64,000 nt of DNA from positions 1 to 64,000 of the forward strand of contig NZ_RCCV01000005.1 in NCBI RefSeq assembly GCF_003664255.1. Reading direction: 5' to 3'. Made by a program: the position numbers and the translations under genes. The DNA comes from Micromonospora sp. M71_S20. Lineage in GTDB: Bacteria; Actinomycetota; Actinomycetes; Mycobacteriales; Micromonosporaceae. Positions 9,961-53,686 of the stretch are shown in pieces. A model generated the notes under the pieces. The model had not been told where the DNA came from. It saw only the letters and a list, made by a program, of their open reading frames with translations, and did not search any database. The first letter of the stretch is position 1, and each line of letters opens with the position of its first letter.

Positions 9961-9992
9961 CTGTCGGGCTGATGTCGTGGACGATTCGTCAG
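9961..9992. repeat. Copy A of a dispersed intergenic element
   Basis: This 32-base stretch lies between the AAA ATPase and gvpK (convergent) and covers the gvpK stop codon. Its first 28 bases differ at two positions from the complement of 26687-26714. The shared core is GCTGATGTCGTGGACGATTC. See the copies at 26642-26715 and 53472-53537. Confidence 0.75.
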
Positions 9993-10429
9993 TCGGTGGG
10001 CAGGAGGGGGCCGAGGGGCCCGAGGTCGAGGTTCAGGTCCTCGGGGGTGAGGCCGAAGTACTCGCGCAGCCCCGTCATCTGCTCCTCGAGGGCCATCAGC
10101 GTGGTGCCGATCCGTTCGACCTGCTCCTCGGTGAGGTCGCCGAGGTCGACCCGGCGCAGCGCCTGTCGCTCCATGAGCTGCCGCAGCAGCTCGATCACAG
10201 TGAGCACGAGGCTGGCCAGCCCCCGCTCGACGGAGTCCCGGTCGACGGCCAGCCGGCGGTCCAGCGGCGTCACCCGGGGCGGCTGCCACCGGGTGTCGCC
10301 GAGCGCGGCGGCGAGTTCGGCCGCCTCGTCCCGGCGGGGGCCACCGCCGCCCGCGCGGCCCACGCCCGCTGTCCCGGCCCCGCCGCCCGGGCCGTCCGGG
10401 CCGCCCGCGGGATCGCCGGGGGCGGTCAT
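9989..10429 (-). CDS. gvpK: Gas vesicle protein GvpK
   Basis: The predicted protein has 146 residues. After a Gly/Pro-rich leader (about 45 residues), the GvpK domain is clear: LAVDRDSVERGLASLVLTVI, ELLRQLMERQALRRVD and EEQVERIGTTLMALEEQM. GvpK is a minor assembly factor found in nearly all gas-vesicle loci. It is the last gene of the operon. Its ATG overlaps the gvpS stop as ATGA (10426-10429). The stop codon lies inside a dispersed repeat element. Confidence 0.93.
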   Translation of the reverse strand: MTAPGDPAGGPDGPGGGAGTAGVGRAGGGGPRRDEAAELAAALGDTRWQPPRVTPLDRRLAVDRDSVERGLASLVLTVIELLRQLMERQALRRVDLGDLTEEQVERIGTTLMALEEQMTGLREYFGLTPEDLNLDLGPLGPLLPTD

Positions 10430-25438: not shown

Positions 25439-26547
25439 TGGCTCTTCGGGTGAACGGCAAGGTGGTGACCCCGACCGGCGTGATCCGGCAGGGCTGCGTG
25501 GAGGTGGACGAGGGCCGGATCCGGGCGGTGGCCGAGTACCCGTCGGTCCGCGACGGGCACTGGATCGTGCCCGGCTTCGTCGACATGCACACGCACGGCG
25601 GCGGCGGACACACCTTCACCACCGGCGACGCCGAGCAGGCCCGGCAGGCCGCCGACTTCCACCTGCGGCACGGCACGACCACCCTGCTGGCCAGCCTCGT
25701 CAGCTCGCCCTTCGTGCTCATGCGCTCGGCCACCGAGGCGTTCGCCCCGCTGGTCGCCGAGGGGGTGCTGGCCGGGATCCACTTCGAGGGGCCGTACCTC
25801 TCCTCCGCCCGCTGCGGCGCGCAGAACCCCGAGTACCTGCGCGACCCGTCCACCGACGAGCTGGCCGAGCTGATCGAGCTGGGCGGCGGGGCGGTCCGGA
25901 TGGTCACCCTCGCCCCCGAGCGGGACGGCGCGCTGGAGGCGATCAAGCTGCTCACGGCGCACCGGGTGGTCGCCGCGGTCGGCCACACCGACGCCACGTA
26001 CGACGAGACCCGCGCCGCCGTCGCGGCGGGCGCGAGCGTCGGTACCCACCTGTTCAACGGGATGCGGCCGGTGCACCACCGCGAACCCGGCCCGGTGGTG
26101 GCCCTGCTGGACGCCCCGAACGTGGTCTGCGAACTGGTCGCCGACGGCGTGCACCTGCACGACGGGATGCTGGCCTTCGCCACGTCGACGGCGGGCCCCG
26201 AGCGGGCCGCCCTGATCACCGACGCGATGGCCGCCGCCGGCATGGCCGACGGCGAGTACGACCTGGGCGGCCAGACGGTCACCGTGGCGGACGGCGTGGC
26301 CCGGCTGGCCCGCGACGGCGCGATCGCGGGCAGCACCCTGACCATGGACGCCGCGCTGCGGCACGCGGTGGGCGCCGGCATCCCGATCGCGGACGCCGTG
26401 CGGATGGCGTCCACCACGCCGGCCCGCGCGATCGGCCTCGGCGACCAGCTGGGCGCGCTCCAGGTCGGGCTCCGGGCCGACCTGGTGGTGCTCGACGACG
26501 ACCTCAACGTGGTCCGGGTGATGCGCGGCGGCTCCTGGGTGGAGTGA
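25438..26547 (+). CDS. nagA: N-acetylglucosamine-6-phosphate deacetylase
   Basis: The predicted protein has 369 residues. It starts at ATG 25438 in a TGATG overlap. Amidohydrolase motifs: VDMHTHGGGG (HxH metal site), IHFEGPYLS (metal Glu), AVGHTDATYDE, GTHLFNGMRPVHHREPG (His ligands) and LITDAMAAAG (catalytic Asp). The enzyme removes acetyl from GlcNAc-6-phosphate; the SIS protein would then act on the amine sugar phosphate. With the DeoR regulator this makes a compact amino-sugar catabolic unit. No transporter lies in the same operon; uptake may depend on the MsiK-type ATPase at 44140. Confidence 0.93.
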   Translation: MALRVNGKVVTPTGVIRQGCVEVDEGRIRAVAEYPSVRDGHWIVPGFVDMHTHGGGGHTFTTGDAEQARQAADFHLRHGTTTLLASLVSSPFVLMRSATEAFAPLVAEGVLAGIHFEGPYLSSARCGAQNPEYLRDPSTDELAELIELGGGAVRMVTLAPERDGALEAIKLLTAHRVVAAVGHTDATYDETRAAVAAGASVGTHLFNGMRPVHHREPGPVVALLDAPNVVCELVADGVHLHDGMLAFATSTAGPERAALITDAMAAAGMADGEYDLGGQTVTVADGVARLARDGAIAGSTLTMDAALRHAVGAGIPIADAVRMASTTPARAIGLGDQLGALQVGLRADLVVLDDDLNVVRVMRGGSWVE

Positions 26548-26641
26548 CGCGGGTCGGGGCGTGAGCGTCACCGGCGCCCGGGCCGTCGCCCTGAAGGGCA
26601 GCGAGGCGACAGCCCACCCGGACGGAGGGGCTCGCGTCCAC

Positions 26642-26715
26642 GCTGTCGAGCTGAATCGTCTACGACATCACACAGGGCGCACAGGCCGAATCGTCTACGA
26701 CATCAGCTCGACAGC
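26642..26715. repeat. Paired inverted copies (B) of a dispersed intergenic element
   Basis: Two direct copies of GAATCGTCTACGACATCA (26653-26670, 26688-26705) are bracketed by perfect 13-base inverted arms, GCTGTCGAGCTGA (26642-26654) and TCAGCTCGACAGC (26703-26715). It lies between the convergent nagA and the DUF4032 gene. The same core occurs at 9961-9992 and 53472-53537. A dumbbell-like RNA or a protein-binding site can form. Confidence 0.85.
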
Positions 26716-26824
26716 GGTCGCGGAATAAGTCCGCCGGAAGGACCGTCACCGCCCGTCACCACGTCGCCGCCGGATTCGGACCGGAATCAGGGTCGGGTCG
26801 CGGCGGAGTCGGAGCGGTTCGGGG

Positions 26825-28042
26825 TCAGGCGGTGGTCGGGACCTCGACGCCGAGCACCGCCTGCTCGTCGGGGCGGTGCACCAGCACGTCGGCGAGGAAC
26901 GACTGCACGGCCGGGGCCATCCCGACGTCCCGGCCGGCCCGCTCGGAGAGCAGCCACTTGTGCTCGATGATCTGCGCGAAGAGCTCCTGCGGCTCCAGCT
27001 TGCGGCGCAGGTGCGCGGGCACGGCCCGGACCACCGGTTCGAAGACCTCGGTGAGCCAGCGGTGGGCGGCCTGCTGCTCGTCGGTCAGGTAGCTCTCGGC
27101 CCGGTACGCGTCGAGGTCGTTGAGCAACCGGCGGGCCTGGTTCTCCTCGGCGTCCAGGCCGGTCAGGCGGAGCAGCCGCCGGGTGTGGTAGCCGGCGTCG
27201 ACCACCTTCGGCCGGATCAGGTACCGCCCGTTGTCGATCGTGGACATGGCCACCTCGGCGACGTCGAAGCCCAGCTCGTTGAGGCGGCGGATCCGCCCCT
27301 CGATGTCGTGCCGGGCCTCCCGCTCGATCTGCTGCTCGTAGGTGATCTCGTGCCACAGCCGCTCGTAGCGCTGCACGACCTCCTCGCAGACCACCTCCGG
27401 GTCGATCGACTCGTGCAGCAGCCCGGCGGCCTGGAGGTCGAGCGCCTCACCGAAGATGTTGACCCGGGCGATCTCCAGGTCCTCGCCGCGCTGGCCGTTG
27501 GAGAGGGAGTGGTGCAGCGCCCCGGTCTCGGCGTCCACCAGGTACGCGGCGAACGCCCCCGCGTCCCGCCGGAACAGCGTGTTCGACAGCGAGCAGTCGC
27601 CCCAGAAGAAGCCGGTCAGGTGCATCCGCACGATCAGGGCCGCCAGCGCGTCGAGCAGCCGGCCCATCGTCTCCGGGCGCAGGGTGTGCGAGAAGAGCGC
27701 CCGGTAGGGCAGCGAGAACTGCAGGTGCCGGGTGATCAGCACCGACTCGAGGGGTTCCCCGTCGTCGGTCTGCCGGTCGGCGACGATCGCCACCGCCTCG
27801 ACCGACGGGAAGTCGATCCGCTCCAGGGCGCGCAGCAGGTCGTACTCCCGCTCGGCGATCCGCTCGCGGGTCTCCTTGAACGCGTAGACGTACTCACCCA
27901 GCCGGACGAAGCGGACGATGTGCCGAGAGATGCCCTGGGGCAGCGCCACCAGGTGTTGCGCAGGCCACTCCTCCAGCGGGGTCGACCAGGGGAGGTCGAG
28001 CAGCGCCGGGTCCACGAGGGCCGAGGTGATCCGCACGGGCAC
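26825..28042 (-). CDS. DUF4032 (kinase-like) protein
   Basis: About 405 residues, starting at GTG 28042 (VPVRITSALVD) or GTG 28036. The N-terminal half has a kinase-like look: FKETRERIAEREYDLLRALE, LITRHLQFSLPYRALF, MHLTGFFWGDCSLSNTLFRR (an HxD/N loop equivalent GDCSLSN) and YLVDAETGALH (DFG-like VDAET). This matches the lipopolysaccharide-kinase/Kdo-kinase-like DUF4032 family. The C-terminal half is DUF4032 proper. The substrate is unknown. It stands alone between two convergent/divergent units. Confidence 0.82.
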   Translation of the reverse strand: MPVRITSALVDPALLDLPWSTPLEEWPAQHLVALPQGISRHIVRFVRLGEYVYAFKETRERIAEREYDLLRALERIDFPSVEAVAIVADRQTDDGEPLESVLITRHLQFSLPYRALFSHTLRPETMGRLLDALAALIVRMHLTGFFWGDCSLSNTLFRRDAGAFAAYLVDAETGALHHSLSNGQRGEDLEIARVNIFGEALDLQAAGLLHESIDPEVVCEEVVQRYERLWHEITYEQQIEREARHDIEGRIRRLNELGFDVAEVAMSTIDNGRYLIRPKVVDAGYHTRRLLRLTGLDAEENQARRLLNDLDAYRAESYLTDEQQAAHRWLTEVFEPVVRAVPAHLRRKLEPQELFAQIIEHKWLLSERAGRDVGMAPAVQSFLADVLVHRPDEQAVLGVEVPTTA

Positions 28043-53471: not shown

Positions 53472-53537
53472 GAATCGTCAGCGACACGGCCCGGGACCGG
53501 CTGCCCCGGCCTTTGGAGCTGATGTCGCAGACGATTC
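53472..53537. repeat. Paired inverted copies (C) of the dispersed intergenic element
   Basis: GAATCGTCAGCGACA (53472-53486) and TGTCGCAGACGATTC (53523-53537) form 15-base arms with one mismatch around a 36-base loop. The right arm is within GCTGATGTCGCAGACGATTC, one base from the core at 26688-26707. It lies between the convergent CGNR and fumC genes. Confidence 0.8.
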
Positions 53538-53686
53538 AGCTTCCACAGGCTCGCGGCAGCATGGTCCGCCGGGCATCAAGGTGGCCGCCCGCTCGCCTCG
53601 ACCAGGCCCGCCGGCATCGCCTCCCGGAACGCCGCCGACGTGCCGAGCCCCACCGGGCCGGACCAGCCGGCGGCACCGGCGCGGGG

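What the first reader, a model, noticed from the sequence alone, without database searches (positions are those of the whole stretch)
26642..26715. Dispersed inverted-repeat element in a convergent gene junction
The 18-base word GAATCGTCTACGACATCA occurs twice here in direct orientation, bracketed by perfect 13-base inverted arms. Its complement recurs, with few changes, at 9961-9992 and in 53472-53537. All three sites lie between convergent genes, where no shared coding function explains conservation. Two of the three carry paired inverted copies able to form a long stem. This points to a genome-wide repeat family acting as bidirectional terminator, RNA stabiliser, REP-like element or binding site of a chromosome-organising protein.
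Basis: seen in the sequence. Interest (0 to 1): 0.7.

Follow-up and report, generated by a model that had tools for sequence, protein, structure and literature searches.

The report
Genus-specific paired palindromic intergenic repeats
The repeat is real and belongs to a family of paired, mirror-image DNA ends scattered between genes of Micromonospora bacteria, whose exact sequence differs between lineages, in several cases at the same place in the genome; what maintains it and what it does are not known.

Summary
The 17-bp core occurs 4 times in the window (0.04 expected) and 24 times with up to 2 mismatches in the genome. The site at 26641-26716 is a 14-bp inverted arm pair around two directly repeated cores and an 18-bp spacer. 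In fetched Micromonospora loci I counted 197 distinct elements: 137 pairs, 19 single-core palindromes, 41 halves; none wholly inside a called gene. They favour convergent junctions (30 of 74 sites; background 45 of 257) but are not confined to them. A 298-genome sample of the order gave matches in the own genus only. Arms tend to follow a genome-wide dialect; one genome has a distinct dialect: 43 copies, 17 of 17 pairs fully inverted, 16 of 26 elements convergent. Rfam has no match to an element; the own genome lacks the Y1 transposase of REP elements. Best reading: REP/BIME-like paired DNA repeats kept alike by an unidentified trans-acting factor. The terminator reading is possible but less supported: cores ignore transcription direction and spacers reach 952 bp. 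New variant of a known kind.

The parts
26641..26654 (+). left inverted arm CGCTGTCGAGCTGA of the main element
   Evidence: perfect 14-bp complement of 26703-26716
26653..26669 (-). core copy 1, GATGTCGTAGACGATTC read on the minus strand
   Evidence: exact match
26670..26687 (.). 18-bp spacer between the two cores
26688..26704 (-). core copy 2, same orientation as copy 1
   Evidence: exact match
26703..26716 (+). right inverted arm TCAGCTCGACAGCG
   Evidence: the whole 26641-26716 folds as RNA at -37.8 kcal/mol, z -6.3
25450..26547 (+). left neighbour, amidohydrolase (Pfam Amidohydro_1; called nagA-like here, a name recalled and not tested)
26825..28042 (-). right neighbour, convergent, protein with DUF4032 and Kdo-kinase-like domains
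9961..9987 (+). half element: left arm CTGTCGGGCT plus core with 1 mismatch, no right arm seen
53511..53548 (+). single-core palindrome CTTTGGAGCT-core-AGCTtCCACAG
53472..53488 (-). degenerate core copy, 4 mismatches

Best explanation
It is a member of a Micromonospora-specific family of REP/BIME-like paired DNA repeats. Each full element has two ends of about 27 bp (a 10-bp arm plus a 17-bp quasi-palindromic core), arms inverted, around a spacer of 5 to 952 bp; a 37-bp form has one core. Shown: intergenic placement, excess between convergent genes, sites shared between species, and arm types that tend to follow the genome ('dialect'). Inferred: a trans-acting protein that recognises the ends as DNA (recombinase/transposase-like or bridging, not identified) spread the ends and keeps each genome's copies alike, so that shared sites are re-written, re-selected or filled again in the current dialect. 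Also inferred: elements persist mainly where they do least harm or some good, between convergent genes, as BIMEs do.
For: Family and specificity: 24 copies with up to 2 mismatches; 36 of 61 genomes of the genus sample; in 298 genomes of the order 22 match, all of the own genus, though only 10 others were of the same family; 18 to 48 cores per genome in six genomes against 0 to 1 for the pattern read backwards. Placement: 0 of 197 elements wholly inside a called gene, while 87% of 462.5 kb sampled is coding. Convergent excess: 30 of 74 site clusters and 16 of 26 G050 elements against 45 of 257 background gaps, chi-square p 9e-7 and 3e-8. Dialect: arm triplets are identical in 616 of 1159 same-genome, different-site comparisons but in 29 of 143 same-site comparisons between genomes of different dominant type; G050 has its own dialect, 43 copies there and 0 in G000. 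Not transcript-stranded: core direction agrees with tandem genes at 15 site clusters and opposes at 18. Arms of one class-1 element match each other no better than arms drawn from the same genome (261 against a mean of 259.1; 1612 of 5000 shuffles reach it).
Against: No cognate enzyme found. No precise empty site or target duplication recovered: the near-empty G002 junction also lacks flanking bases, and the hutF insert cannot be delimited (by eye). Over all same-site comparisons arm identity (176 of 363) is about as high as within genomes (616 of 1159); the 29 of 143 is partly circular, because a genome's dominant type was taken from the same arms. Element by element, core direction leans with the genes (43 with, 29 against). 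In G050 the arms of one element do match above chance (357 of 20000 shuffles), as pairing or unit-wise copying would give. Bases outside the arms are complementary slightly above chance (10, 6 and 0 of 2000 shuffles; 155 to 194 of 2000 within genomes; 1 to 5 of 5000 in the smaller set). A near-identical element at two non-orthologous loci of G239 shares flanks too. Direct cores in 112 of 137 pairs are not what ordinary terminal inverted repeats show.
Confidence: 0.45

Rival explanations
1. Bidirectional transcription terminator or RNA 3'-end stem: each strand folds into a long hairpin that ends or protects both convergent transcripts.
For: Strong convergent excess. The main element folds far better than shuffles with RNA and DNA parameters (z -6.3 and -7.5). 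Arms stay self-complementary through large changes of sequence between lineages at one junction (by eye). Two single-core forms are predicted at -21.3 and -28.0 kcal/mol.
Against: Spacers run up to 952 bp, poor for intrinsic termination (general knowledge). Ordinary short-loop hairpins (stem 9 or more) are about as frequent at element-bearing convergent junctions, outside the element (10 of 31), as at others (27 of 92), so elements do not seem to replace them; lengths were not matched. One shared site lies between two tandem genes, 12 nt before a start codon. Divergent sites exist (11 of 74).
Confidence: 0.25
2. Binding site of a chromosome-organising or topology protein (gyrase-, IHF- or HU-type) at places where convergent transcription piles up supercoils.
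For: Sites are spread along the chromosome with an origin-side excess: 86 of 121 sites of six genomes in the origin half. The core is conserved in either orientation. BIMEs bind gyrase and IHF according to PMC2817692 (passages read).
Against: The spacing between the two ends varies from 5 to 952 bp. Only 9 to 30 sites per genome in the six genomes counted. The origin excess may merely follow conserved genes; in three of six genomes it is not significant alone. No factor known.
Confidence: 0.2
3. Plain MITE: remnants of a classical DDE insertion sequence with 27-bp terminal inverted repeats.
For: Fully inverted ends in 17 of 17 pairs of G050. Patchy presence at shared sites: 7 of 30 loci at hutF and 19 of 30 at the nagA/DUF4032 junction, the latter including 2 with other palindromes.
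Against: Called genes lie inside only 7 of 197 elements: six DoxX-like and one repetitive frame (DoxX by recall). Direct cores in 112 of 137 pairs. No target duplication seen. At shared sites the ends often carry the genome's own dialect, which dead copies should not.
Confidence: 0.1

Closest known systems
REP sequences and BIMEs (e.g. of E. coli, Pseudomonas, Stenotrophomonas)
   Same: Short imperfect palindromes in inverted pairs around variable DNA, intergenic, biased to gene 3' ends (bias of REPs recalled), tens of copies.
   Different: No GTAG/GTGG-type foot at the base of the palindrome as in the REP table of PMC2817692 (GTAG here lies inside the core). No Y1 transposase in the own genome. 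Lineage dialects at shared sites. Two core classes with one arm.
Correia / NEMIS elements of Neisseria (MITE)
   Same: Inverted ends of similar length around variable DNA, no transposase of their own, near genes; at hutF one end abuts a start region.
   Different: The spacer is not conserved; most pairs have cores in direct orientation; preference is convergent rather than upstream; no target duplication seen. (Correia features: passages of PMC10969869, and recall.)
DNA uptake sequence dialects of Neisseriaceae
   Same: Lineage-specific versions of one short repeat, set by a trans-acting receptor.
   Different: Dozens rather than thousands of copies (the latter recalled); 27-bp ends with a spacer; no link to competence tested. 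(PMC3630211 and PMC3868556: only the start of the abstract in the listing.)
Short-loop terminator-like hairpins of this genome
   Same: Palindromes in convergent junctions.
   Different: In 25 of 45 convergent gaps the best perfect inverted repeat has arms of 11 to 19 bp; apart from this element their loops are 0 to 26 nt. The elements have a conserved sequence and mostly longer, variable spacers.

Membership tests
REP/BIME | short imperfect palindromes, intergenic, many copies, in inverted pairs | tested here: met
   197 elements, 137 pairs, 0 wholly inside called genes
REP/BIME | associated Y1 (RAYT/IS200-type) transposase in the same genome | tested here: not met
   PF01797 has 0 matches in G000 and matches in 10 of 31 genomes
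REP/BIME | conserved GTAG/GTGG-type foot at the 5' base of the palindrome | tested here: not met
   by eye: arms begin CT and cores GATG; REP table seen as a passage
MITE | terminal inverted repeats without a transposase gene | tested here: met
   arms complementary; no called transposase inside 197 elements. Full inversion of arm plus core only in 25 of 137 class-1 pairs and in 17 of 17 G050 pairs
MITE | target site duplication at precise empty sites | tested here: inconclusive
   hutF and nagA/DUF4032 junctions too diverged to delimit
MITE | autonomous parent element with the same ends | tested here: inconclusive
   none among fetched loci; no search for a parent over whole genomes was run
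intrinsic bidirectional terminator | located at gene 3' ends | tested here: met
   30 convergent, 33 tandem, 11 divergent of 74 sites
intrinsic bidirectional terminator | stable hairpin with a short loop | tested here: inconclusive
   true for the two single-core forms folded; most pairs have spacers of tens to hundreds of bases
intrinsic bidirectional terminator | transcripts end there | not testable with these tools
   no RNA 3'-end data
known structured RNA (Rfam 15) | match to a family model | tested here: not met
   20 of the loci held, 67180 bases, E up to 1: one hit, a SAM riboswitch elsewhere in L062; none on an element
DNA uptake sequence | recognised by a competence receptor | not tested
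   no call was made

The most novel reading that the evidence does not exclude
A genus-wide system in which an unknown, lineage-variable factor recognises paired 27-bp DNA ends and drives concerted change of dozens of dispersed intergenic sites, so that the same junction carries a different dialect, or even a different core class, in different lineages, without any REP-type transposase.
Probability: 0.3. Interest if true: 0.75.

Novelty: new variant of a known kind. Interest (0 to 1): 0.5.

Why it matters
Repeated palindromes between convergent genes are widespread, but how they are kept up is poorly understood. This family offers many shared sites with different dialects within one genus, so a co-evolving factor could be sought by comparing genomes, and the terminator, topology and mobile-element readings can be separated at the same junctions.

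Tried and rejected
REP/RAYT membership: rejected for this genome, Y1_Tnp absent. Known RNA family: no match in 20 loci. Phage origin: the exact core+arm pattern has 0 hits in viral contigs. Stem maintained locus by locus: the global arm test looked strong (382 of 468 against a mean of 301), but shuffling within genomes removed it (261 against 259.1); it returned in G050 (68 of 85 against 57.7, 357 of 20000 shuffles). Transcript-strand-specific RNA motif: not supported by site clusters (15 with, 18 against gene direction), though single elements lean with the genes (43 and 29). Integrated circular cassette between direct cores: considered and dropped, since spacers go down to 5 bp. Mobile doxX cassette: the doxX-like gene lies between ends at what looks like one site, so it is not shown to move. 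Shared function of neighbours: 30 proteins beside 15 own-genome elements show mixed metabolic and regulatory families and no transposase family; 3 of the 30 matched nothing; neighbours of the other own-genome elements were not scanned. Conservation of ends over flanks between orthologues (means: ends 87.0%, 40-bp outer flanks 68.8%, spacer 36.1%, flanking genes 89.5%; 227 of 236 pairs, 9 dropped for flanks above 97%) is inflated because the elements were found by their ends: random element pairs already score 81.5% and unrelated flanks 62.8%. Literature: searches listed no paper on such repeats in Micromonospora; only openly licensed papers are held, and I read passages of two papers. One search was badly chosen (its pattern ran into the spacer) and says nothing.

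Limits of the counts: the 197 come from loci mostly found by core and arm, so they are not a random sample; some overlap within one array (four nested pairs in L134, two in L294); the 92 site clusters are not all independent, since one search shows several pairs of clusters sharing a neighbouring gene. Genome labels were assigned by me from call tables and contig lengths. Gene calls are from my own caller.

Full report
What is in the window. The core GATGTCGTAGACGATTC occurs four times with up to 3 mismatches; shuffles give 0.04. At 26641-26716 two cores in the same orientation, 18 bp apart, are bracketed by 14-bp inverted arms. At 9961-9987 there is one arm plus core; at 53511-53548 a single-core palindrome. 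All three sites lie between convergent genes by my own gene caller. The main site separates an amidohydrolase gene, called nagA-like here from memory, from a DUF4032 gene.

Genome. The 17-mer occurs 24 times with up to 2 mismatches; with up to 3 it occurs 60 times, against 8 for the pattern read backwards. One of the 24 (L015) shows no arm. I placed 18 own-genome elements or halves: 8 convergent, 7 tandem, 3 divergent, against 45, 145 and 67 of 257 gaps of at least 40 nt in 462.5 kb of this genome (convergent binomial p 0.007). A second class shares the arm but has another core (CTGTCGAGCTG followed by CCCC). Of ten such loci placed, nine have both neighbours called: 3 convergent and 6 tandem.

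Genus. With core plus arm and up to 3 mismatches, 36 of 61 genomes of the genus sample match, own genome included, and the reversed control is 0 in all 61. In 298 genomes of the order, 22 match, all of the own genus; only 10 others of the same family were in the sample. No viral contig matches the exact pattern.

Anatomy. From the loci fetched by then I collected 197 distinct class-1 elements: 137 pairs, 19 single-core palindromes, 41 halves; some overlap within arrays. Spacers run from 5 to 952 bp. Cores are direct in 112 pairs and inverted in 25. None lies wholly inside a called gene; of the 177 with a neighbour on both sides, 70 are convergent, 84 tandem and 23 divergent. The main element folds as one long rod (RNA -37.8 kcal/mol, z -6.3; DNA z -7.5). 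Several long spacers hold simple tandem repeats (seen).

Sites. Flank comparison groups the 197 into 92 clusters; for the 74 with context: 30 convergent, 33 tandem, 11 divergent, chi-square p 9e-7 against background. The clusters are not all independent. In tandem clusters the core runs with the genes at 15 and against them at 18; counted by element it is 43 and 29. Ordinary short hairpins are about as common beside elements (10 of 31) as in other convergent junctions (27 of 92); the control junctions are shorter.

Two loci chosen by protein, not by repeat. The DUF4032 gene was found in 61 of 61 genomes and 30 loci were returned. Reading the junction by eye, 19 of 30 are long (150 bp or more) and 11 short (under 100). 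Of the 19 long ones, 17 carry class-1, class-2 or G050-type ends and 2 (L125, L131) carry other palindromes; I saw none of these ends in the 11 short ones. The second locus is an amidohydrolase gene that I call hutF from memory (Pfam Amidohydro_1): 61 of 61 genomes, 30 loci returned. There 23 of 30 have no gap between the genes and 7 have an insert with at least one recognised end. The right arm ends 12 nt before the start codon in all 7, including two class-2 elements (L159, L178), and in 6 of 7 further loci compared, one of which (L009) is the same locus as L175; L073 gives 21 through a local duplication. So at one point in the genome arm type and core class differ between species while the position is fixed; whether by change in place or by refilling is not decided.

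Dialects. Arms counted are GTC-type in 15 of 24 in G000 and TTG-type in 17 of 22 in G239. Identical type: 616 of 1159 same-genome, different-site comparisons; 176 of 363 same-site, different-genome; 29 of 143 when the genomes' dominant types differ, a test that is partly circular. Shuffling right arms within genomes reproduces the observed complementarity (261 against 259.1), so in class 1 the match between arms is explained by the genome, not the locus. G050 has its own version, CTACGAGTTTGATGACGTNNATGAATC. Its last 21 bases, searched with up to 3 mismatches, have 43 copies in G050, 11 in G022, 1 each in G046, G008, G043 and G239, and 0 in five others, G000 included. Its 26 elements are 16 convergent, 7 tandem and 3 divergent; all 17 pairs are fully inverted, and 9 are halves. 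There the two arms of one element do match above chance (357 of 20000). Its nagA/DUF4032 junction is the same site as the window's.

Chromosome. A dnaA domain was located in eight genomes; I used the six with complete lists of positions. 86 of 121 sites lie in the origin half (quartiles 40, 46, 21, 14; KS p 2e-6; single genomes p 0.0005 to 0.34; the length of G022 was taken as the rounded 7.0 Mb). Sites are partly shared between genomes, and conserved genes may explain this.

Interpretation. Shown: family, anatomy, restriction to the genus in the samples searched, intergenic placement, convergent excess, dialects, absence of a Y1 transposase in this genome and of an Rfam match. Inferred: a trans-acting factor that recognises the ends as DNA. 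Against it: no factor was found, no clean insertion was found, and there are weak signs of stem selection. The terminator and topology readings stay open.

Noticed in passing
L052/L062, L061, L101, L102, L287, L311: In several genomes two element ends, 681 to 952 bp apart, flank a small DoxX-like membrane protein gene (name by recall, no family search). L064 keeps the ends and only what looks like the gene's terminator (by eye).
   Followed up: partly
L062:4076-4211: SAM riboswitch (RF00162, 72.1 bits) near the doxX site of G029.
   Followed up: no
L007, roughly 40 to 115 bp left of the core at 1501: A different inverted repeat, CGTCGATCATGCAGTTGTGGTG and its complement, beside a class-1 half element (by eye): another palindrome family.
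   Followed up: no
L131: At the same nagA/DUF4032 junction G051 carries a palindrome with arms CTTTGCTCTGCA, relation to this family unclear.
   Followed up: no
L152, L153, L171: At hutF these genomes (G046, G050, G051) have overlapping genes with a junction that looks like a deletion scar of the occupied form rather than the usual empty form (by eye).
   Followed up: partly
window 9989-10363: The gene right of the 9961 half element encodes gas vesicle protein K; an AAA ATPase lies to the left, suggesting a gas vesicle cluster.
   Followed up: no
G014 (L181, L191, L193-L198): 8 matches to the IS200-type Y1 transposase in one draft genome, several at contig ends.
   Followed up: no
L112 and L118 (G239): Two loci of one genome share a nearly identical element plus flanks over about 240 bp (80%), a possible recent copy whose unit exceeds the arms.
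   Followed up: partly
L089 (G000) and L294: A class-2 element of the own genome and a class-1 element of another genome lie between matching neighbour proteins, so one site can hold either class.
   Followed up: no
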